Shown here: one piece after another, positions 36,277 through 46,811 of the stretch
Layout: each line of letters opens with the position of its first letter
How positions within the stretch are numbered: position 1 is the first letter of the stretch
DNA from: Asanoa sp. WMMD1127
Lineage (GTDB): Bacteria > Actinomycetota > Actinomycetes > Mycobacteriales > Micromonosporaceae
DNA length: 64,000 nt
Assembly (NCBI RefSeq): GCF_029626225.1
Contig: NZ_JARUBP010000001.1
Location: 434,001 to 498,000 of the forward strand
Direction of reading: 5' to 3'
Program-made: the position numbers and the translations under genes
The notes under the pieces: generated by a model
Database searches by the model: none
What the model was told of the DNA's origin: nothing
Seen by the model: the letters and a program-made list of their open reading frames with translations, nothing else

Positions 36277-36340
36277 TCAATGACCGGGCCGGTCCGACGC
36301 GAGATGGTGAGTGCACCATACGAAGCCGAAAGGGACCGCC

Positions 36341-37867
36341 ATGCAGCACAGCCACATTTCCCGCCGTTCCGTTCTCGCCGGCGCCGCCGGGCTGGCCGCG
36401 GGCGCGGCCGGGCTCGGCGTCGGCCGGGCCAGCGCGACGCCCCGCGTCGCGACCGCTGCCGACCGGTTCACCGCCATCACCCACGTCACCGTCATCGACG
36501 CGACCGGCGCACCGGCCCAGCGCGACATGACCGTGCTGCTGCGCGGCGACCGGATCCTCGCCGTCGAGCCGAGCCGGCGCGTCGGCGTGCCACCCGGCGC
36601 TCAGGTCGTCGACGGGCGCGGCAAGTTCCTCATCCCCGGTCTGGCCAACATGCACAACCACACGTTCGACGGCGAGCTGATCGAGCCGCCGCTGAACATC
36701 GCCAACGGCATCACCACGGTCCGCGAGATGAGCGCCAACGCCGACGTCACCCAATGGCGGCGCGAGATCGCGGCCGGCACCCGGCTCGGTCCGCGCTACA
36801 CCATCGGCAGCCCGATCGTCGACGGCTCGCCGTCGCTGTGGGAGGGGCTCGGTGCGCCGTACATCGCCGTCGCCACGCCGGCCGAGGGTCGGGCCACCGT
36901 CCGCGCGCAGAAGGACGCCGGTGCCGACTTCGTGAAGGTCTACACGCGACTGTCGCGGGCGAGCTTCTTCGCGATCGCCGACGAGGCGCGGCGGCAGCGC
37001 ATCCCGTTCCTCGGCCACGTCTCCGACTTCGTGCAGCTGACGGAGGCCAGCGACGCCGGCCTGGCCAGCGTCGAACACCTCTTCCAGGTCTTCTACGACC
37101 TCTCCAGCCGCGAGGACGAGCTGCGCCGGGCCATCACCTCCGTGCCGATCGCCGGCGGGGAATACAACGGCTGGCTAAACAAGATGCACCCCTACGAGTA
37201 CGCCGCCGCCCGCAGCGTCGACCGGCACAAGGCGGCCGGCGTCTTCGCCCGGCTCGCCCGCAACCGCACGCGGGTCACCCCGACGCTCGTGCTGCACACG
37301 TTCACCGACCTGCCGGGCGACACCCCGTTGACCGACCCGCGGTACGCCTATGTCCCGGCCGCCACCCAGGGGTTCTGGCAGTTCGCCCTGGAGCTGATCT
37401 ACCTCAACGGGCGTACGCCGGAGCAGGACGCCCGCGGCCGCGAGATCTACGAGCGTCGGCTGCGCCTGGTGTACGACCTCGACCGCGCCGGCGTGCCGCT
37501 GCTGGCGGGCACCGACAACGGCACCGCCTACCTGGTGCCCGGCTTCAGCCTGCACGACGAGCTGGCCAGGCTCGCGCAGGCCGGCCTGACAAACATGCGC
37601 GTGCTGCAGACCGCGACGCTCGAACCCGCCCGTTACCTCGGCGCCCGCGACCGCGGCACGATCGAGCGGGGCAACGTCGCCGATCTCGTGCTGCTCGACG
37701 CCGACCCGCTGCGCGACATCCGCAACACCACCCGGATCAACTCGGTCGTCGTCCGCGGCGAGGTGATCGACCCGGCCGCCCGCCAGCGGATGCTCGACGA
37801 CGTCCGGCAGGCCGCCGCCGCGCAGCCTCCGGCGCCCGCTCCGGTGGCCGCACGCTGCCCCTGTTGA
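36341..37867 (+). CDS. Tat-exported amidohydrolase (imidazolonepropionase-like)
   Basis: The 508-residue protein starts at ATG 36341 after GAAAGGG, with a twin-arginine signal (SRRSVLAGAAGLAAGAAGLG). It is an amidohydrolase-superfamily barrel: FLIPGLANMHNHTFDG gives the HxH metal pair near residue 108, a FVKVYTRLSR segment contains the likely metal-bridging lysine, GHVSDF gives another histidine and LLAGTDNGT the final Asp. A C-terminal GTIERGNVADLVLLDADPL ends the barrel, as in imidazolonepropionase/adenosine-type members. It acts outside the membrane; the C-N substrate is unknown. A perfect hairpin follows its stop. Confidence 0.83.
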   Translation: MQHSHISRRSVLAGAAGLAAGAAGLGVGRASATPRVATAADRFTAITHVTVIDATGAPAQRDMTVLLRGDRILAVEPSRRVGVPPGAQVVDGRGKFLIPGLANMHNHTFDGELIEPPLNIANGITTVREMSANADVTQWRREIAAGTRLGPRYTIGSPIVDGSPSLWEGLGAPYIAVATPAEGRATVRAQKDAGADFVKVYTRLSRASFFAIADEARRQRIPFLGHVSDFVQLTEASDAGLASVEHLFQVFYDLSSREDELRRAITSVPIAGGEYNGWLNKMHPYEYAAARSVDRHKAAGVFARLARNRTRVTPTLVLHTFTDLPGDTPLTDPRYAYVPAATQGFWQFALELIYLNGRTPEQDARGREIYERRLRLVYDLDRAGVPLLAGTDNGTAYLVPGFSLHDELARLAQAGLTNMRVLQTATLEPARYLGARDRGTIERGNVADLVLLDADPLRDIRNTTRINSVVVRGEVIDPAARQRMLDDVRQAAAAQPPAPAPVAARCPC

Positions 37868-37876
37868 CCATTTCCG

Positions 37877-37911
37877 GCATGGGGTCATCCGACGATCGGA
37901 TGACCCCATGC
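37877..37911 (+). terminator. Strong hairpin terminator after the amidohydrolase gene
   Basis: A perfect 15-bp stem, GCATGGGGTCATCCG (37877-37891) with its complement (37897-37911), encloses the 5-base loop ACGAT. It begins nine bases after the amidohydrolase stop and isolates the NfeD-flotillin-ATPase operon. Confidence 0.75.
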
Positions 37912-37964: not shown

Positions 37965-38555
37965 GTGGGCGACTTCATCGACACGGCGCTGGGCTTCCCG
38001 TCCGTCATCTTCACCGTCCTGCTCGCCGTGGTCGTCTGCTACTGGATCGTGGTGCTGGCCGGCGGGCTCGACACCGACACCGACGGCGGGCTCGACGGCC
38101 TGCTCGACCGGCTGGGCCTCGGCGGCGCGCCGGCCACCGTCGCGCTGTCCATTGTGGTGGCTCTCGCCTGGTTCGCCAGCCTCGTCGGCTCGGTGCTGCT
38201 GCCCGACAACGCCGCCCTCGACATCGTGGTGCTGCTGGCCAGCCTGGCCATCGGCTGGGCGATCGTCAGCCTGCTCCGCCGCCCGCTGAGCCGGCTCTTC
38301 CCCCACACCTCCGGGGCGTCCCGGCACGACTTCGTCGGCCGCGAGTGCGTCATCCGCACGGGCCGCGTCGCGATCGACTTCGGCCAGGCCGAGGTGCACG
38401 CCGCCGACGGGTCCTCGGCCATCGTCCAGGTCCGCCAGACCGGCGCCGACTCGTTCGGCGCGGGCACCCGGGCGGTCATCTACGACTACGACTCCGCCGG
38501 TGAGTTCTTCTGGGTCGTGCCGGCCGACCTCTCGGATCAATCGAAGGGCCGTTGA
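37965..38555 (+). CDS. NfeD/YqiJ-like membrane protein (OB-fold, flotillin partner)
   Basis: The 196-residue protein is read from GTG 37965 because it then starts MGDFIDTALGFPSVIFTVLL, as expected for the YqiJ/DUF1449 family. It has three transmembrane segments (about residues 12-32, 56-78, 85-105) and a C-terminal OB-like domain (FVGRECVIRTGRVAIDFGQA, then EFFWVVPADL). Family members are encoded beside flotillins and are thought to scaffold membrane microdomains. Its stop overlaps the flotillin start (TGATG), so the two are coupled. It heads a three-gene operon with the flotillin and the giant ATPase. Confidence 0.8.
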   Translation: MGDFIDTALGFPSVIFTVLLAVVVCYWIVVLAGGLDTDTDGGLDGLLDRLGLGGAPATVALSIVVALAWFASLVGSVLLPDNAALDIVVLLASLAIGWAIVSLLRRPLSRLFPHTSGASRHDFVGRECVIRTGRVAIDFGQAEVHAADGSSAIVQVRQTGADSFGAGTRAVIYDYDSAGEFFWVVPADLSDQSKGR

Positions 38556-40576
38556 TGGACGTCATTTCCCTTGGGTTCCTCGTGCTCGTGCTGGTGCTCG
38601 TGCTCGTGCTGCTGGGCGTGGTGCTGCTCGTCAGCCGCCTGTTCAAGAAGGTCGAGCAGGGCAAGGCGCTGATCATCTCGAAGACCCGCAAGGTCGACGT
38701 CACGTTCACCGGCGCCGTGGTGCTGCCCGTGTTCCACAAGGCCGAGGTCATGGACATCTCGGTGAAGACGATCGACGTCGAGCGGTCCGGCACCGACGGG
38801 CTGATCTGCCGCGACAACATCCGGGCCGACATCAAAATCGCCTTCTTCGTGCGCGTCAACAAGACCGCCGAGGACGTCGTCAAGGTGGCCCAGGCGATCG
38901 GCACCGCGCGCGCCAGCGACCAGTCGACGCTCCAGGAGCTGTTCAGCGCCAAGTTCTCCGAGGCGCTGAAGACCGTCGGCAAGCAACTCGACTTCGTCGA
39001 CCTCTACACCAAGCGCGACGAGTTCCGCGACCGCATCATCGCCGTCATCGGCACCGACCTCAATGGATACTCGCTCGAGGACGCCGCGATCGACGTGCTC
39101 GAGCAGACCCCGATGGACCAGCTCGACCCGCGCAACATCCTCGACGCGCAGGGCATCCGGAAGATCACCGAGCTGACCGCCGCGGAACACGTGCGCACCA
39201 ACGAGTTCCGGCGCAACGAGGAGAAGGAGATCACGCGGCAGAACGTCGACGCCCGTGAGGCCATCCTCGAGCTGGAGCGCCGCCAGGCCGACGCGGAGAT
39301 CAAGCAGAAGCGCGAGATCGACACCATCCGCGCCCGCGAGGAGGCCGAGACCGAGCTGGTCCGGGCCGAGCAGCGGCTGCGCTACAACGCGGCCAACCTG
39401 CGCACCGACGAGCAGCTCGGCGTGCAGCGGGAGAACCAGGCGCGCGAGATCGCGGTCGCGGAGAAGAACCGCGAGCGGGTCATCGCCATCGAGACCGAGC
39501 GGATCGAGAAGGACCGCATGCTCGAGGTGATCGGCCGCCAGCGGGAGACCGAGCTGTCCACGATCGCCAAGGACAAAGAGGTCGAGGCCGAGAAGCGGGC
39601 GATCGCCGAGGTGGTCCGCGAGCGGATCGCGGTCGAGAAGACGGTCGCCGAGCAGGAGGAGCACATCAAGCGCCTCCGGGTGGTCGAGGAGGCCGAGCGG
39701 CTGCGTCAGTCGACGGTGATCCAGGCCGAGGCCCAGGCCCAGGAGAACCTCGTCAAGGACATCAAGGCCGCCGAGGCGGCCGAGGCGGCGGCCAAGCACC
39801 GCGCCCGCGAGCAGCTCGTGCTGGCCGAGGCCCGGCAGCAGGCCGCCGAGCTCGACACCCGGGCGAAGATCCGGCTGGCCGAGGGCGCCCAGGCCGAGGC
39901 GGCCGCGGCGGGGCTGGCCGAGGTGCAGGTGCGCGAGCGCGACGCCGAGGCGATCGAGAAGGTCGGCCGGGCCGAGGCCGCGGTCGAGCGCGAGAAGGCG
40001 ATCGCGGCGGCCGAGGGGATGCGCGAGAAGCTCAAGGGCGAGGCCGAGGGTCTCACCGAGAAGGCGGCCGCGATGGCCGCGCTCGACGACGCGACCCGCG
40101 AGCACGAGGAATACCGGCTGCGCCTGGAGGCCGAGAAGGAGATCCGGCTCGCCGGCATCGACGTGCAGCGGCAGGTGGCCGAGGCCCAGGCGACGATCGT
40201 CGGCAAGGGTCTGGAAAAGGCCGACATCGACATCGTCGGCGGCGACAGCATCTTCTTCGACCGGCTGCTCGGCGCGATCTCGGTCGGCAAGAGCGTCGAC
40301 GGCTTCGTGCAGAACTCGACGGTCGCCACCTCGCTGGCCGGCCCGTGGCTCAACGGCGACAACAGCTTCGCCGACGACCTCGGCAAGCTGCTGGGCAAGG
40401 CGAGCACGTCCGACATCACCAACCTGACGCTGAGCGCCTTCCTGCTGCAGCAGATCAAGGCCGGTGGCGCCGACGCGGGCCGGTTGCGCGAGCTGCTGAC
40501 CGCGGCCGAGAAGCTGGGCGTCGCCGACGCGCCGCTGGCCGCGCTCGACGCCAAGCAGCCGGCCGCCCGTGGCTGA
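38555..40576 (+). CDS. Flotillin (YqiK-like, SPFH domain, long coiled coil)
   Basis: The 673-residue protein has an N-terminal membrane segment (FLVLVLVLVLVLLGVVLLV), an SPFH/band-7 domain (about 30-220, with LPVFHKAEVMDISVKTIDVE and DNIRADIKIAFFV) and a coiled coil of about 300 residues rich in EAE/REKA repeats (about 230-540). The C-terminus continues with DIDIVGGDSIFFDRLLGAIS and a helical tail. Flotillins oligomerise into membrane domains. It begins at the ATG overlapping the NfeD-like stop and overlaps the ATPase start by 8 bases, so all three proteins are likely made in fixed ratio. Confidence 0.88.
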   Translation: MDVISLGFLVLVLVLVLVLLGVVLLVSRLFKKVEQGKALIISKTRKVDVTFTGAVVLPVFHKAEVMDISVKTIDVERSGTDGLICRDNIRADIKIAFFVRVNKTAEDVVKVAQAIGTARASDQSTLQELFSAKFSEALKTVGKQLDFVDLYTKRDEFRDRIIAVIGTDLNGYSLEDAAIDVLEQTPMDQLDPRNILDAQGIRKITELTAAEHVRTNEFRRNEEKEITRQNVDAREAILELERRQADAEIKQKREIDTIRAREEAETELVRAEQRLRYNAANLRTDEQLGVQRENQAREIAVAEKNRERVIAIETERIEKDRMLEVIGRQRETELSTIAKDKEVEAEKRAIAEVVRERIAVEKTVAEQEEHIKRLRVVEEAERLRQSTVIQAEAQAQENLVKDIKAAEAAEAAAKHRAREQLVLAEARQQAAELDTRAKIRLAEGAQAEAAAAGLAEVQVRERDAEAIEKVGRAEAAVEREKAIAAAEGMREKLKGEAEGLTEKAAAMAALDDATREHEEYRLRLEAEKEIRLAGIDVQRQVAEAQATIVGKGLEKADIDIVGGDSIFFDRLLGAISVGKSVDGFVQNSTVATSLAGPWLNGDNSFADDLGKLLGKASTSDITNLTLSAFLLQQIKAGGADAGRLRELLTAAEKLGVADAPLAALDAKQPAARG

Positions 40577-43500
40577 GACGGCCACCGCGCCGACGGCGTT
40601 GGACGCCGGCACCTACGAGGTGCTGCGCGACCGGCTGGCGGCGCGGTCGGCCGAGCTGGCCCGCCGGGCGGAGGAGCTCAACGCCCGGCGGCTCGCCGAG
40701 TTCGGCAGCACCGAGCTGCGGCTGGTCGGCACCGACCGGGTCCGCACCGAGCACAACTGCGTGCCGCGCGACATCGTGCCGGCCGGCGGCGTGATGCTGT
40801 TCGGCTACAACGTGTTCCTCGGCCTCAAGCCGGAGACCACGGTCGGCGACGTGTTCTCGCTGCACCGGTTCCTGCGCGACGGCGACGCGTTCCGGTTCGA
40901 CGACGTGCCGCCGGCCGAGGTGCCCGGTCTGCTCGACGACGAGACATTCCAGCGCGACTTCGCCGAGCTCTACCGCTACTACAAGGAGACCCGGCTCGCC
41001 ACGCTGCGCGAGGTCGACGGCAAGCTGCTCGCGGTCTTCCAGACGGGCCCGCGCACCGAGGACATCCGGGTGCTGCGCTGGACGCTGACGCCGACCGGCG
41101 CGGTGTCCTATGTCGACAACCGTGGCGAGCGCGACCACGTCTTCCCGCCCAGCCACGACTTCGAATGGGTCGAGACGAGCCGCGACGACCACGTGCTCGG
41201 CCGCCACCCGCACATCTCGATCGCCGGCGAGGTGTTCGTCGAGACCGTCGGTGGCGACCTCACGCTCAAGGTCGAGGACAACACGGAGTCCGGCGAGGGC
41301 ATCTATTCCGAGCCGGTCGAGCAGCCGCTGCAGAGCCTGGCCGACGCCGACGTGCACTGGGCCCGGGTCGGCCCGCTGATCCTGCTGCGCATCCGGCCCT
41401 ACAAGGAGAGCGACTGGCGGCACCTGGTCTTCAACACGCGCACCAAGGGCGTGGTGCGGCTCGACGGCATCGGCCAGGCGTGCCAGCGGCTGCCGGAGGA
41501 CCACGGCATCATCTTCCCGGGCGGCTTCTATCTGACCACCGGCGCGGTGAAGACGTTCGACACCGACACCAGCGATCTGGTCTTCGAGCGGGCCATCCGG
41601 TCACCCAACGGCGAGGACGTGCTCTTCGTCTTCCACGCGCAGGTGGAGGGGCGCAGCCTGCTGCTGCCGTACAACGTGATCCGGAAAGAGGTCTCGACCC
41701 CGCTCTCCTGTCACGGCTATTCGCTGTTCGACGACGGCACGCTGGTCGTCTTCCGGGCCACCTCGGACGAGCCGACCCGGGTGCACCCCATGCAGGTGTG
41801 GCAGACCGCGTTCGTCTCCGACGCGTACGCCGCCCGGCAACCCGCCGGCGCCGGGCCCCTGCACCGCGTAGGCAACGCCGACCTCGTCCGCGGCATCTCC
41901 GACGCGCTGTCGATCGCCCGGATGGTCGGCGAGTCGACGCCGTCCGTGCCGGTCTTCGAGGCGCTGATCGCGGCCTGCGTGCGGGTCTTCGACCACTACC
42001 ACTGGCTCGGCGAGGCGGAGCTGGGCGACCTGCGCACCCCGCTGGCCGAGGTTCGGGCGACCGCCGAGCAGGTACTCGACGAGTACGAGAAGGTCCAGGC
42101 CCTCACCGCCGCCGCGACGACCGCGCTGGAGACGGCCGCGGCCGACATCGCCTCGCTGGTCCGCCGGGTCAACGGCGAGCTGCCGGCGACCACCGACGGA
42201 TGGGTCAACCAGCTCGCCGAGCTGCGCCGGGCCCAGGGCCACCTGGAGACGCTGCGCGAGCTGCGCTACGTCGACCTGGCCCGGATCGACGCCCTCGCCG
42301 CCCGGCTGACCGGGGAACTCGACGGCGCCGCCCGCCGGGCGGTCGAGTTCCTCAAGCGCGACGACGCGTTCGCCGGCTACCAGGCCGAGGTCGCCCGCCT
42401 GACCGCCACGGGCGCCGAGGTGCCCACGGTCGCGGCGGCCGGGCCGGTCGCCGAGCAGCTCACCGCCCAGGCCGACGCGCTGCGGTTGGTCACCGACGTC
42501 GTGGGCACCCTCGACATCGCCGACGCCACGGTGCGCACCGCGATCCTGGAACGCATCGGCGAGGTGCTCGGCGCCGTCAACCGGGCCCGGGCCGTGCTCG
42601 ACGCGCGCCGCCGCGAGCTCGCCGCGGTCGAAGGGCGGGCGGGCTTCGCGGCCGAGTTCGCGTTGCTCAACCAGGCGGTCACCGGAGCGCTGGCGGCCGC
42701 GGACACGCCCGAGGCGTGCGACGACCAGCTCGGCCGGTTGCTGCTCCAGGTGGAGAACCTCGAGTCCCGCTACGGCGAGTTCGACGACTTCCTGACCGAG
42801 CTGTCCACCAAACGCACGGACGTCTACGAGGCGTTCGCGGCCCGCAAGCAGGCGCTGGTCGACGACCGTTCGCGGCGGGCCGACCGGCTCGTCGAGTCGG
42901 CCGAGCGCATCCTCGCCAGCGTGCGCCGCCGTGCGTCCACGATGGACACGCTCGACGACGTCAACACGTACTTCGCCGCCGACCCGATGGTGGCCAAGCT
43001 CCGCTCGGTCGCCGACGAGCTGCGCGCGCTCGGCGACGCCGTCCGCGGCGAGGAGCTCGACGGCCGGGTCAAGGCGGCCCGCCAGGAGGCCGGGCGGGCG
43101 CTGCGCGACCGGGTCGACCTGTTCCGCGACGGCGGCGAGACGATCCAGCTCGGCCGGCACCGGTTCGCCGTCAACACCCAGGCGATCGAGCTGGCGCTGG
43201 TGCCGCACGACGGCCGGCTCGCGGTCGCGGTCACGGCCACCGACTTCCGCGCGCCGGTCGACGACCCGGAGTTCGACAGCACCCGCGAGTTCTGGGACCA
43301 GCCGCTGGTCTCGGAGTCGCCGGCGGTCAGCCGCGCCGAGTTCCTGGCCACGTCCATGCTGGCCACCGCCGACCTCGACGCCCTGCACGCGGCCGCCGCC
43401 GGCGGGACGCTGGCCGACCTCGTGCGGCGGGCGGCCGAGGAGCGGATCGACGAGGGCTACGAGCGCGGCATCCACGACGCCGACGCGACCGCGATCCTCG

Positions 43501-45431
43501 ACGCCCTGCTGCGCCTGCACGCGGGCGCCGGACTGCTGCGCTACCCACCGGCGGCGCGGGCGGCGGCCCAGCTGTTCTGGGCGTTCGGCGCGCCGGACCC
43601 GGCGTGGCAGCGCCGCTCGACCTCGCTGGCCCGGGCCCGCGCGGTGTTCGGGGGGTCGCCGGCCATCGACGAGCTGCAGGCCTCGTTGGGAGCGGCGGTG
43701 ACCGCGTTCGCCGCCGGGCATGGGCTGCCCGATCACCCCCTGACCGGCGAATACCTGTTCGAGGAGCTGGCCGCCAACGCCGGCGGCTTCGTGACGAGCG
43801 CCGGCGCGCGGGCGCTGATGGCCGACTTCCGCAAGCGGCTCGGCCGCCCGAAGGCCCGCGAGTTCGACGAGGACCTGCGGGCGCTGGGCACCGACCTGGC
43901 GGCCCGGCACCAGCTCGCCGAGGCGTGGCTGACCGCGTTCGCGGGCGCGCACGACGACCTCGCCGAGGCGGTCACGCTCACGCTGTGCGACCTGCCCCGC
44001 TACGACTCTTCGGCCGAGCTGTCCGCCACCGTCGACGGGTTGCTGGCGACGCATCCGCGGATCGCCGAGCGGCGGTTGACGGTGCGGTTGGACGAAGCGC
44101 TGGCCCGTACGCGGGAGTTCCGGGAGCAGCGGGTGCCGAGGTATCGGGCCTATCAGCGCCTGCGGGCGGCGGTCGCGGCCCGGGCCGGCGAGCGGCTGCG
44201 GCTCGACGAGCACAAGCCGCGGGTGATGTCGGGCTTCGTACGCAACCGGTTGTTGGACGAGGTCTATCTGCCCTTGATCGCTGACAATCTCGCCCGGCAG
44301 GTGGGCGCCGCGGGTGAGGGCAAGCGGGTCGACCAGTCCGGATTGTTGCTCTTGATCTCCCCGCCCGGCTACGGCAAGACCACCCTCATGGAATACGTGG
44401 CGAGCCGGCTCGGGCTGGTGTTCGTCAAGGTGAACGGGCCCGCGCTCGGCGCCGACGTGACATCGGTGGACCCGTCGTCGGCGCCCAACGCGACGGCGCG
44501 GCAGGAGGTCGAGAAGATCTCGTTCGCGCTGGAGATGGGCAGCAACGTGTTGCTCTACCTCGACGACATCCAGCACACGTCGCCGGAGCTGCTGCAGAAG
44601 TTCATCTCGCTGTGCGACGCGCAGCGCCGGATGGAGGGCGTCTGGAACGGCCGGACCCGGACGTACGACCTGCGGGGCAAGCGGTTCGCGGTGTGCATGG
44701 CCGGCAACCCCTACACGGAGTCGGGCAAGCGCTTCCGGGTGCCGGACATGCTCGCGAACCGCGCCGACGTGTGGAACCTGGGCGACGTGCTGTCGGGCCG
44801 GGAGGACCTGTTCGCGCTGAGCTACGTCGAGAACGCGCTGACCGCCAACCCGGTGCTGGCCCCACTGTCCACACGGGAGCGCGGCGACGTGGAGCTGCTC
44901 GTCCGCATGGCCCGCGGCGACAGCTCGGTGCTGCCGGACCAGCTCGCCCACCCGTACCCGCCGGTCGAGCTCAACCAGATCCGCTCGGTCCTGACCAAGC
45001 TGCTGCGGGTGCAGGACGTGGTGCTCGCGGTCAACCGGGCCTACATCGCCTCGGCGGGCCAGGACGACGCGGCCCGCACGGAGCCGCCGTTCCTGCTGCA
45101 GGGCTCCTACCGCAACATGAACAAACTCGCCGAACGCATCCTGCCGGTGATGAACGACGAGGAACTGGAGTCGGTCCTCGACGACCACTACCTGGGCGAA
45201 GCACAGACCTTGGCCGCGGCGGCGGAGGCCAACCTGCTGAAACTGGCGGAGCTCCGCGGCCGCCTGACCTCCGAGCAGGCCGCCCGCTGGTCCGACGTGA
45301 AGGCGGCCTACCTGCGCCAGCGGGCCCTGGGCGGCGCCGACGACGACCCGATGACCCGCGCCGTCGGCGCCGTCGGCCTGGTGGCCGACCGCATCGCCGC
45401 CGTCGAAGCCGCCCTCCGCCAGCGGGACTAG
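40569..45431 (+). CDS. Giant AAA+ ATPase (DUF3686, 'DNA repair ATPase' type)
   Basis: The 1620-residue protein is read from GTG 40569, overlapping the flotillin stop. Residues 1-450 are beta-rich (DUF3686-like, with VFLGLKPETTVGDVFSLHRF), 450-880 are long helical segments, and 880-1230 a further helical module. The AAA+ domain (about 1240-1480) has Walker A SPPGYGKTT (Lys1270) and Walker B LLYLDDIQ (Asp1332, Asp1333), followed by a MAGNPYTESG sensor-like stretch. A C-terminal helical region ends at 1620. Databases label the family 'DNA repair ATPase', but no repair role is evident here. The linkage to flotillin and NfeD suggests a membrane-associated remodelling machine. It stops flush against the opposing PD-(D/E)XK gene. 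Confidence 0.85.
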   Translation: MAETATAPTALDAGTYEVLRDRLAARSAELARRAEELNARRLAEFGSTELRLVGTDRVRTEHNCVPRDIVPAGGVMLFGYNVFLGLKPETTVGDVFSLHRFLRDGDAFRFDDVPPAEVPGLLDDETFQRDFAELYRYYKETRLATLREVDGKLLAVFQTGPRTEDIRVLRWTLTPTGAVSYVDNRGERDHVFPPSHDFEWVETSRDDHVLGRHPHISIAGEVFVETVGGDLTLKVEDNTESGEGIYSEPVEQPLQSLADADVHWARVGPLILLRIRPYKESDWRHLVFNTRTKGVVRLDGIGQACQRLPEDHGIIFPGGFYLTTGAVKTFDTDTSDLVFERAIRSPNGEDVLFVFHAQVEGRSLLLPYNVIRKEVSTPLSCHGYSLFDDGTLVVFRATSDEPTRVHPMQVWQTAFVSDAYAARQPAGAGPLHRVGNADLVRGISDALSIARMVGESTPSVPVFEALIAACVRVFDHYHWLGEAELGDLRTPLAEVRATAEQVLDEYEKVQALTAAATTALETAAADIASLVRRVNGELPATTDGWVNQLAELRRAQGHLETLRELRYVDLARIDALAARLTGELDGAARRAVEFLKRDDAFAGYQAEVARLTATGAEVPTVAAAGPVAEQLTAQADALRLVTDVVGTLDIADATVRTAILERIGEVLGAVNRARAVLDARRRELAAVEGRAGFAAEFALLNQAVTGALAAADTPEACDDQLGRLLLQVENLESRYGEFDDFLTELSTKRTDVYEAFAARKQALVDDRSRRADRLVESAERILASVRRRASTMDTLDDVNTYFAADPMVAKLRSVADELRALGDAVRGEELDGRVKAARQEAGRALRDRVDLFRDGGETIQLGRHRFAVNTQAIELALVPHDGRLAVAVTATDFRAPVDDPEFDSTREFWDQPLVSESPAVSRAEFLATSMLATADLDALHAAAAGGTLADLVRRAAEERIDEGYERGIHDADATAILDALLRLHAGAGLLRYPPAARAAAQLFWAFGAPDPAWQRRSTSLARARAVFGGSPAIDELQASLGAAVTAFAAGHGLPDHPLTGEYLFEELAANAGGFVTSAGARALMADFRKRLGRPKAREFDEDLRALGTDLAARHQLAEAWLTAFAGAHDDLAEAVTLTLCDLPRYDSSAELSATVDGLLATHPRIAERRLTVRLDEALARTREFREQRVPRYRAYQRLRAAVAARAGERLRLDEHKPRVMSGFVRNRLLDEVYLPLIADNLARQVGAAGEGKRVDQSGLLLLISPPGYGKTTLMEYVASRLGLVFVKVNGPALGADVTSVDPSSAPNATARQEVEKISFALEMGSNVLLYLDDIQHTSPELLQKFISLCDAQRRMEGVWNGRTRTYDLRGKRFAVCMAGNPYTESGKRFRVPDMLANRADVWNLGDVLSGREDLFALSYVENALTANPVLAPLSTRERGDVELLVRMARGDSSVLPDQLAHPYPPVELNQIRSVLTKLLRVQDVVLAVNRAYIASAGQDDAARTEPPFLLQGSYRNMNKLAERILPVMNDEELESVLDDHYLGEAQTLAAAAEANLLKLAELRGRLTSEQAARWSDVKAAYLRQRALGGADDDPMTRAVGAVGLVADRIAAVEAALRQRD

Positions 45432-46811
45432 CTAGTCGTCGGCGCCCTTGCTGGGCTGCGGCACCTTGATGGGCTCTGGTCCGTCCTGCGACGAGATCGC
45501 GCTGGCGATCAGGCTCGACGCCACCGGCTCGCCGGAGGCGGGTTCGTCCGTGGAGCGCAGCCGTGGCGGCGACGGCAGCCAGGGTTTGAGCGACTGCAGC
45601 ACCTGCTCGTAGAAGTCGTCGACCGCCGACAGCACCGAGTCGATGAAGGAACCCCTGCCGACCCCGCGTTTGGTCCCGGCCGAGGTCACCTGTGCGACAC
45701 GGAAGGCGCGAAGCTCCTTCGCCGGGTCGGCGATGAGACGGGTGGGGTCGTCACGGACGACACGCAGCGGATCGACCCGACCGGGGCCACGAGCATGCAT
45801 CGCGAACGACTCGACGGTAACGGTCTCAGGAGCGTTCTTGAGCTGTCGGACGAGCCAGTTGACGCGCGTCGTCGGCCGGCCCTCGCGCGGTGCGTCGATC
45901 TCGACCGAGCAACTCACCTTGGCGGCCCGCAAATCGGCCATGACCTGGAGCGTCCCTGCGGCGCCAGGGATTCGCAACGCGGCGGTCATCGTGCCGGTCG
46001 ATGCCAGTTGCGCCGCGAGCGCTTGCGTCCGCCCCGCCGGTTCCGCCAACTCACGACGGCTGAGTGCTGGTACGACTTCGGCGCCCAGTCGTCGGCCCAG
46101 CCGGAGGCCCGCGTAGCGGACCAAGGCGTCGAAGCGGCTGGCAACTTCAGGAACGGCTGGATCGCTGGGGCGAAGAGTTCCGGAAGCGACAGCTTCCCGC
46201 ACCGAGACCCAACCCTGGCCCATGTCCGCGAACTCCATGGCACCTGACCGGGGGTGTTCGAGGTAGCGGATCAGCTCTCCCAGAATCCAGGCTTGATCCG
46301 GGTCAGCGACGCCGCGGTACTCCTTCTGCATGACCGCGGCGGTCAGGATCTCCGTCCACGGAATGTGGTGCAACAGCACTTTCCGAAGCTTGCGCTTGTC
46401 GATCGGAGTCGGATGCTGACCAGGCACGGGCGGCATTTGGTTAGAGATCGTGATCAGGGCGTCGAAGCCCGCTTCCCGCGCGATGTCGAGGTAGGCCTCG
46501 AGCTGTTCCTGCCGCAGGTCGTTGGTGCCGGTCTTGACTTCGAGCAGGGCGGTCCACTGGCGCTGTCCACGAGTTACGCGGATCAGCCCGTCCGGAAAGA
46601 ACCTCTTGCCGCCGACGTCGAACGGCACTTCGATGAAGGTCTGCACGGCACCGGCCGGCGCGCCGAGCGGCGCGGTCAACGCCCGCCCGAACTCCCGCAC
46701 GGCACTCATCACCGCCAACAGCGCCGACGTCGCACGTCTTTCCTGTTCCTCCGGTCCGTTGATGCCGGACGTCGGAATCAGTCGAGCTTCCTGCCACGCT
46801 TCCTCGGACAT
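45432..46811 (-). CDS. PD-(D/E)XK-like nuclease-fold protein ('stress response' type)
   Basis: The 459-residue protein has a PD-(D/E)XK core: RFFPDGLIRV (Pro73-Asp74) and TALLEVKTGTNDLRQEQLEA (Glu91-Val92-Lys93), then an AREAGFDALITISNQ strand-helix. The rest is a long predicted alpha/beta tail with SSQDGPEPIKVPQP at the end. Close actinobacterial relatives are labelled 'stress response protein', which says little about activity. GGAAGGTGA (46815-46823) precedes ATG 46811. Codons are less GC-extreme than in its neighbours, hinting at different ancestry. Its stop is directly adjacent to that of the ATPase (TAG|CTA). Confidence 0.7.
   Translation of the reverse strand: MSEEAWQEARLIPTSGINGPEEQERRATSALLAVMSAVREFGRALTAPLGAPAGAVQTFIEVPFDVGGKRFFPDGLIRVTRGQRQWTALLEVKTGTNDLRQEQLEAYLDIAREAGFDALITISNQMPPVPGQHPTPIDKRKLRKVLLHHIPWTEILTAAVMQKEYRGVADPDQAWILGELIRYLEHPRSGAMEFADMGQGWVSVREAVASGTLRPSDPAVPEVASRFDALVRYAGLRLGRRLGAEVVPALSRRELAEPAGRTQALAAQLASTGTMTAALRIPGAAGTLQVMADLRAAKVSCSVEIDAPREGRPTTRVNWLVRQLKNAPETVTVESFAMHARGPGRVDPLRVVRDDPTRLIADPAKELRAFRVAQVTSAGTKRGVGRGSFIDSVLSAVDDFYEQVLQSLKPWLPSPPRLRSTDEPASGEPVASSLIASAISSQDGPEPIKVPQPSKGADD

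What the first reader, a model, noticed from the sequence alone, without database searches (positions are those of the whole stretch)
37965..45431. NfeD-flotillin-giant AAA+ ATPase: a tightly coupled membrane machine of unknown purpose
Three genes overlap or abut by 1 and 8 bases: a YqiJ/NfeD-like OB-fold membrane protein, a flotillin, and a 1620-residue AAA+ protein of the DUF3686 type. Fixed coupling suggests a stoichiometric complex in which an ATPase is tethered to flotillin microdomains. The databases call the ATPase 'DNA repair', for which I see no motif. The ATPase has an intact Walker A (Lys1270) and Walker B (Asp1332/1333). This is the best candidate here for an undescribed system.
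Basis: partly seen in the sequence, partly recalled or inferred. Interest (0 to 1): 0.65.

Follow-up and report, generated by a model that had tools for sequence, protein, structure and literature searches.

The report
Flotillin-tethered AAA+ remodelling machine
Three neighbouring genes encode a membrane scaffold (flotillin), a small membrane helper and a very large ATP-driven remodelling protein; the set has been described before as a gene neighbourhood linked to envelope stress, and what it acts on is still unknown.

Summary
[quoted passage not shown] this locus looks like one of those. NfeD is looser (not detected in 12 of 74 named loci, all Streptomyces), and the tight overlaps are not conserved. 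DUF3686 models as a WD40-like propeller. The AAA+ module is structurally nearest to MoxR-type CbbQ/NorQ, but its model lacks the MoxR helix-2 hairpin, and Walker B has Asp for the catalytic Glu in 44 of 44 sequences. Best reading: a flotillin-docked AAA+ remodeller of envelope proteins; substrate unknown.

The parts
37965..38555 (+). NfeD/YqiJ-like membrane protein, 196 aa; membrane helices and a C-terminal part taken to be OB-like by alignment (inferred, not modelled)
   Evidence: start agrees with homologues in alignment A5; weak link to E. coli YqiJ
38555..40576 (+). YqiK-type flotillin (SPFH) protein, 673 aa
   Evidence: YqiK E 9e-38; Band_7 in 9 of 28 aligned family members but not in the window's own
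40569..45431 (+). DUF3686 propeller-coiled-coil-AAA+ protein, 1620 aa
   Evidence: PF12458 E 6.5e-220, PF25472, AAA; models
40707..41810 (+). WD40-like beta-propeller, residues 47-414 (most of DUF3686)
   Evidence: model mean pLDDT 89.2; VIA rows, by name mostly WD40 propellers, Z 7.2-9.1
42363..42617 (+). DUF7902 helical segment, residues 599-683
44193..45263 (+). AAA+ module, residues about 1209-1565
   Evidence: VIA range 370-726 of the C-terminal model, best AfCbbQ2 Z 17.3
44358..44384 (+). Walker A SPPGYGKTT, residues 1264-1272
   Evidence: 44 of 44 identical
44436..44489 (+). conserved stretch where MoxR proteins have the helix-2 hairpin (residues 1290-1307); modelled without strands
   Evidence: secondary structure; conserved columns
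44550..44576 (+). Walker B LLYLDDIQH, residues 1328-1336; Asp in place of the catalytic Glu
   Evidence: D1332 and D1333 44 of 44
44628..44669 (+). pre-sensor-1 beta-hairpin, residues 1354-1367
   Evidence: two strands in the model
37877..37911 (.). perfect 16-bp inverted repeat with 3-nt loop just upstream of nfeD, likely terminator or regulatory hairpin (inference)

Best explanation
A membrane-docked AAA+ remodelling machine for envelope proteins. Shown: the flotillin and the ATPase are a near-obligate gene pair. Inferred: the flotillin, helped where present by the YqiJ/NfeD-like protein, assembles a cage or clamp on the cytoplasmic face of the membrane; the DUF3686 ATPase forms a ring beside it, its WD40-like propeller and coiled coil bind flotillin and client, and its AAA+ pore, closest in shape to the MoxR-type remodellers CbbQ and NorQ, disassembles or refolds the client during envelope stress. 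It would be to this flotillin what FtsH is to HflK/HflC, but with no protease domain found. In some bacteria PspA and a CesT/Tir-type chaperone are encoded in the same run of genes, so PspA-type filaments are one plausible client.
For: The same 45 of 296 class genomes hold both genes (four flotillin candidates scored per genome; Fisher 2.5e-54, not corrected for relatedness). Same-strand flotillin upstream in 46 of 46 class loci (two of them, both in genome G101, have a broken flotillin frame), 78 of 78 evaluable named loci, 34 of 36 in a second phylum, 9 of 9 plasmid-collection records opened of 12 found. Where split (2 of 36), flotillin with an NfeD-like neighbour lies on another contig. PspA in the same run of genes in pQBR103 and a Hymenobacter plasmid. 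AAA+ nearest CbbQ/NorQ: ten best rows, Z 14.7-17.3 over 224-253 residues, rmsd 3.4-4.0. NorQD is a target-remodelling complex (PMC13036017, passages). FloA of S. aureus holds unfolded proteins (PMC11222466, abstract).
Against: No protein interaction, localisation or phenotype was found in the searches made. Walker B lacks the catalytic Glu in 44 of 44, so ATP hydrolysis is not assured. No PspA, Tir or YjfI relative was found by tblastn at 1e-4 in the DNA held around 46 class, 80 named and 38 second-phylum loci. A LexA-family regulator stands divergently next to the Hymenobacter operon, which could hint at DNA-damage control. Linkage shows partnership, not mechanism.
Confidence: 0.5

Rival explanations
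1. A bacterial counterpart of Vps4: the ATPase specifically disassembles PspA (ESCRT-III-like) filaments at flotillin domains.
For: PspA and CesT/Tir-type genes share the run of genes in pQBR103 and Hymenobacter; PspA is in 45 of 45 trio genomes against 190 of 251 others (trio genomes matched by eye; Fisher 1.5e-5); the idea follows PMC11237479.
Against: The genome's only PspA match is far away (C1:3710006 against the window's C1:434001-498000), and none was found around 164 loci from genome assemblies (distant forms could be missed and some flanks are short). The AAA+ fold is nearest MoxR types; classical AAA rows in the list reach 12.6 at most; Vps4 itself is not listed, which excludes nothing.
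Confidence: 0.2
2. A nucleotide-switched scaffold: the AAA+ module binds ATP and oligomerises but hydrolyses slowly or not at all, setting the assembly state of the flotillin platform.
For: Asp replaces the Walker B Glu in 44 of 44, and also in the pQBR103 protein; in NorQ changing that Glu to Gln leaves about 2% of the activity (PMC9976466, passages). DnaA also has Asp-Asp there (recalled).
Against: Walker A is invariant in 44 of 44; DnaA still hydrolyses ATP (recalled).
Confidence: 0.15
3. A cofactor-insertion or activation chaperone for a membrane enzyme, as NorQ is for nitric oxide reductase.
For: Structural nearness to NorQ and CbbQ.
Against: No conserved enzyme or VWA partner seen nearby: among flanking frames of 47 sequences (46 of the 80 named loci and the window; frames of 90 aa or more with G+C-rich third positions) no family recurs in more than 6 of 23 labels, and the widest looks like generic ABC ATPases. 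The MoxR-defining helix-2 hairpin is absent in the model.
Confidence: 0.08
4. A DNA-repair ATPase, as databases name it.
For: Pfam description 'ATPase involved in DNA repair'; weak RuvB_N match of 18 bits, cut-off 27; RuvB heads the Foldseek list by E-value; a LexA-family regulator is divergent from the Hymenobacter operon.
Against: Near-obligate pairing with a membrane protein; no gene named for repair, other than the ATPase itself, in the annotated neighbourhoods read (three further records had no annotation there); the RuvB sequence match covers only residues 1244-1294.
Confidence: 0.05
5. An anti-phage defence system.
For: Patchy distribution (45 of 296) and presence on plasmids (12 records, some chromosome-sized).
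Against: Best PADLOC match E 0.002 over the P-loop only; no match in 50,697 phage records at 1e-5.
Confidence: 0.03

Closest known systems
band-7/flotillin - YqiJ/YuaF - propeller AAA+ neighbourhood of PMC11237479
   Same: The same three kinds of protein; that paper says shortened operons without PspA, in some cases with the ATPase, are more widespread.
   Different: Here without PspA or CesT/Tir beside it. Added here: exact co-occurrence counts, persistence of the pair when unlinked, NfeD loss in Streptomyces, MoxR-like shape of the AAA+ module, Asp-Asp Walker B. Its supplements were not readable, so some of this may be there.
E. coli YqiJ-YqiK
   Same: Flotillin homologous (28% over 464 residues, E 9e-38), same gene order.
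   Different: E. coli K-12 has no DUF3686 gene next to yqiK; the NfeD link is weak.
HflK/HflC-FtsH
   Same: An SPFH assembly with an AAA+ ATPase (PMC13220708, start of abstract in a search listing).
   Different: FtsH carries a protease; no protease domain was found here.
MoxR ATPases CbbQ/NorQ
   Same: Nearest solved fold of the AAA+ module; pre-sensor-1 hairpin.
   Different: No helix-2 hairpin in the model, Asp-Asp Walker B, no VWA partner seen; fused to propeller and coiled coil.

Membership tests
Flotillin/band-7 - YqiJ/YuaF - propeller AAA+ neighbourhood (PMC11237479) | band-7/flotillin protein beside the AAA+ gene | tested here: met
Flotillin/band-7 - YqiJ/YuaF - propeller AAA+ neighbourhood (PMC11237479) | AAA+ ATPase with N-terminal propeller and coiled coil | tested here: met
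   propeller residues 47-414, long helices after 430, AAA+ at the C-terminus; identity with that paper's protein rests on its wording, its accession was not fetched
Flotillin/band-7 - YqiJ/YuaF - propeller AAA+ neighbourhood (PMC11237479) | YqiJ/YuaF-type 3TM protein | tested here: inconclusive
   profile match to YqiJ E 8.6e-6, probability 83%; no Pfam match for the window's protein
Flotillin/band-7 - YqiJ/YuaF - propeller AAA+ neighbourhood (PMC11237479) | CesT/Tir-PspA dyad (full operon only) | tested here: not met
   the genome's one PspA match lies far away; the paper allows shortened operons without the dyad
MoxR AAA+ (clade with helix-2 insert) | beta-hairpin insert in helix 2 | tested here: not met
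   no strand between model residues 451 and 484; definition from PMC13036017. A model, not a solved structure
MoxR AAA+ (clade with helix-2 insert) | pre-sensor-1 beta-hairpin | tested here: met
   strands 515-520 and 523-528 of the model
MoxR AAA+ (clade with helix-2 insert) | Walker B Asp followed by catalytic Glu | tested here: not met
   Asp-Asp in 44 of 44; definition from PMC9976466
MoxR AAA+ (clade with helix-2 insert) | VWA-domain partner | tested here: inconclusive
   no widely recurrent extra neighbour among 47 sequences; no VWA model was searched for
Vps4-like classical AAA | N-terminal MIT domain | tested here: inconclusive
   no MIT match listed by Pfam; definition from PMC11237479
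DNA-repair ATPase | role in repair | not testable with these tools
   -
SPFH/flotillin family | SPFH (Band_7) domain | tested here: met
   homology to YqiK; Band_7 in 9 of 28 aligned family members, not in the window's own protein at E 0.01

The most novel reading that the evidence does not exclude
A second, protease-free kind of SPFH-AAA+ machine: a flotillin cage with its own dedicated ring ATPase, of a sub-class between MoxR and other pre-sensor-1-hairpin AAA+ proteins, using a WD40-like propeller instead of a VWA protein as client adaptor, spread over at least Actinomycetota, Pseudomonadota, Deinococcota, Bacteroidota and Myxococcus relatives.
Probability: 0.33. Interest if true: 0.62.

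Novelty: new member of a known kind. Interest (0 to 1): 0.33.

Why it matters
What bacterial flotillins do is still debated. A flotillin type that, in the genomes sampled here, never occurs without its own ATPase gives a clean handle: the ATPase's clients would say what the flotillin platform is for. It also argues that the database name 'DNA repair ATPase' is unsupported for this family.

Tried and rejected
DNA repair: set aside for lack of any repair domain; the only hints for it are the Pfam label, weak RuvB similarity and a LexA-family regulator beside one operon. Defence: PADLOC and phage searches gave nothing beyond the P-loop. Extra operon members: all-against-all of flanking frames of 46 of the 80 named loci and the window gave at most 6 of 23 labels per family; the top 15 families were shown. 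Solved relatives by sequence: only P-loop-level matches for the ATPase, none for the flotillin. Foldseek superpositions of the propeller were poor (TM 0.18 by query length), so I rely on VIA, whose Z of 7-9 is itself modest. In the VIA list for the AAA+ part Vps4 did not appear; absence there is not evidence. Adjacency counts from the class sample and the named scan overlap (for example G249 and L107, G243 and L125, G275 and L091 are the same contigs by length) and must not be summed.

Literature: searches for DUF3686, 'DNA repair ATPase' with flotillin, NfeD-flotillin-AAA, YqiJ/YqiK, MoxR with flotillin, 'DNA repair ATPase' alone, MoxR-CbbQ. PMC11237479 was the only paper seen that describes the trio. 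Seen: section 19 and passages of PMC11237479; passages of PMC9239133, PMC2636767, PMC13086221, PMC13036017, PMC9976466; abstract and outline of PMC11222466; PMC13220708 in a listing only.

Rows dropped: named loci L088 and L150 have 10 and 250 nt upstream, so flotillin could not be judged; for NfeD also L096, L099, L132 and L137. L119, counted as lacking NfeD, has a two-helix frame before the flotillin that the NfeD profile does not match. In the second phylum L223 and L240 have under 1500 nt upstream (L240 has flotillin all the same); six loci have under 3200 nt and were left out of the NfeD count. Two of its 38 carriers, G298 and G300, were known carriers beforehand. One search measured 96 of 124 loci; its extremes (-4824 and 1495) are probably false motif hits. 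The PspA, Tir and YjfI queries came from the two plasmid loci that they hit and from this genome.
Full report
OBSERVATION. The window lies in a 7.97-Mb genome in three contigs (G000) whose closest named matches for this protein are actinomycetes. Three plus-strand genes follow one another: an NfeD/YqiJ-like membrane protein (37965-38555), a flotillin (38555-40576) and a 1620-residue DUF3686 protein (40569-45431), overlapping by 1 and 8 nt. DUF3686 covers residues 29-478 (E 6.5e-220), DUF7902 599-683, and an AAA+ module starts near 1260. Walker A SPPGYGKTT (K1270) is invariant in 44 of 44 aligned sequences. Walker B is LDD: the position of the catalytic Glu is Asp in 44 of 44, so 'intact Walker B' is an overstatement.

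WHAT THE PARTS ARE. The flotillin matches E. coli YqiK over 464 residues (28%, E 9e-38), although the window's own copy misses the Pfam Band_7 model at E 0.01; 9 of 28 aligned relatives, YqiK included in the set, match it. The small protein is only weakly tied to YqiJ (E 0.003 pairwise; profile E 8.6e-6, probability 83%). AlphaFold2 models of residues 1-700 (mean pLDDT 89.2) and 840-1620 (90.3) show a many-stranded domain followed by long helices, and a C-terminal AAA+ module. VIA matches residues 47-414 to proteins that by name are mostly WD40 propellers (best Z 9.1, 223 residues, rmsd 6.4; Foldseek superpositions were poor), which agrees with the published description as a beta-propeller. 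The AAA+ module's ten best rows are CbbQ and NorQ chains: AfCbbQ2 Z 17.3 (253 residues, 3.8 A), NorQ up to 16.7, csoCbbQ 15.6; dynein and Rea1 follow at 13.2-13.9, ClpA at 13.0 and classical AAA rows at 12.6 or less. By Foldseek E-value RuvB comes first. The model has the pre-sensor-1 hairpin but no strands in the helix-2 region, where the defining MoxR hairpin should be (definition: PMC13036017, passages). It is therefore MoxR-like in shape but not filed as MoxR.

In an even sample of 296 class genomes, 45 encode DUF3686 and exactly the same 45 encode this flotillin at E 1e-30 or better (four candidates scored per genome); Fisher 2.5e-54, not corrected for shared ancestry. All 46 class loci outside the window have a same-strand flotillin upstream; in both loci of genome G101 (L061, L064) its frame looks broken. 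Of 80 named loci (best 80 of 525 relatives in a capped scan), 78 have it and the other two have almost no DNA upstream. In the phylum of genome G300 (unnamed; the record behind it is titled 'uncultured proteobacterium'), 38 of 235 genomes have DUF3686, two of them known carriers beforehand; 34 of 36 evaluable loci have flotillin upstream, and the two exceptions carry it, with an NfeD-like neighbour, on another contig. Of 12 plasmid-collection records (some chromosome-sized) nine were opened: nine of nine have flotillin upstream and eight an NfeD-like gene. They come from Streptomyces, Deinococcus, Pseudomonas, Hymenobacter, Proteus, Vibrio and Halomonas. No phage record matched.

WHAT IS NOT FIXED. 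An NfeD-like gene is found in 42 of 46 class loci (40 by tblastn, two more by profile, one of them weak), 62 of 74 evaluable named loci (the 12 lacking it are all Streptomyces) and 28 of 32 second-phylum loci with at least 3200 nt upstream. In a Streptomyces plasmid it is cut down to 144 residues of membrane part. The overlap is not conserved either: in the 96 of 124 loci that could be measured the conserved ATPase N-terminus lies a median 105.5 nt after the flotillin stop, within 60 nt in 21, against 22 nt here by the same measure (worked out by hand). So the invariant unit is flotillin plus ATPase; the 1- and 8-nt overlaps say little.

KNOWN OR NEW. [quoted passage not shown] The full form is visible in pQBR103 (YjfI, PspA, rhomboid, DUF2491, DUF350, DUF1190, glutathionylspermidine synthase, then small protein, SPFH, ATPase) and a Hymenobacter plasmid (Tir chaperone, PspA, DUF1449, flotillin, ATPase, with a divergent LexA-family regulator). 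In this genome the one PspA match is far away, and no PspA, Tir or YjfI relative was found in the DNA held around 46 class, 80 named and 38 second-phylum loci (distant forms could be missed and some flanks are short). All 45 trio genomes have PspA somewhere, against 190 of 251 others (matched by eye; p 1.5e-5), which ancestry and genome size may explain.

MECHANISM. Shown: near-obligate partnership in the genomes sampled, and the domain make-up. Inferred: flotillin, with or without the small membrane protein, makes a platform at the membrane; the ATPase docks on it by propeller and coiled coil and uses a MoxR-like ring to remodel clients in envelope stress. S. aureus flotillin holds unfolded proteins without ATP (PMC11222466, abstract); an added ATPase would supply release or refolding. 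The Asp-Asp Walker B leaves open a slow ATPase or a nucleotide switch. A Vps4-like action on PspA is possible, but the AAA+ shape and the rarity of linkage (none of 164 loci from genome assemblies, two of nine plasmid loci) speak against it as the general function.

VERDICT. A real, well-conserved partnership that is already in print as a gene neighbourhood. The structural class of the ATPase, the exact co-occurrence and the dispensability of NfeD are additions made here; the supplements of PMC11237479 could not be checked for them.

Noticed in passing
37877-37911: Perfect 16-bp inverted repeat with a 3-nt loop between the upstream amidohydrolase gene and nfeD; terminator or operator not distinguished.
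   Followed up: partly
45432-46811: A convergent 459-aa gene on the minus strand ends directly against the ATPase stop with no gap; no Pfam or NCBIfam match at E 0.01.
   Followed up: no
L051: Genome G057 carries two trio copies; one ATPase frame is interrupted by a stop after 622 residues.
   Followed up: no
L061 and L064: Genome G101 carries two ATPase copies, and the flotillin frame beside each looks broken.
   Followed up: no
L201:3343-3777: NfeD-like partner reduced to its membrane part, without the OB-like domain, in a Streptomyces plasmid.
   Followed up: partly
36311-37867: Upstream amidohydrolase with a TAT-signal match below the curated cut-off.
   Followed up: no
L197:34-13238: Plasmid pQBR103 joins the polyamine-type PspA operon and the flotillin-ATPase trio in one run of genes, two groups treated separately in PMC11237479.
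   Followed up: partly
L199:2583-3368: A LexA-family regulator stands divergently next to the Tir-PspA-DUF1449-flotillin-ATPase genes of a Hymenobacter plasmid.
   Followed up: no
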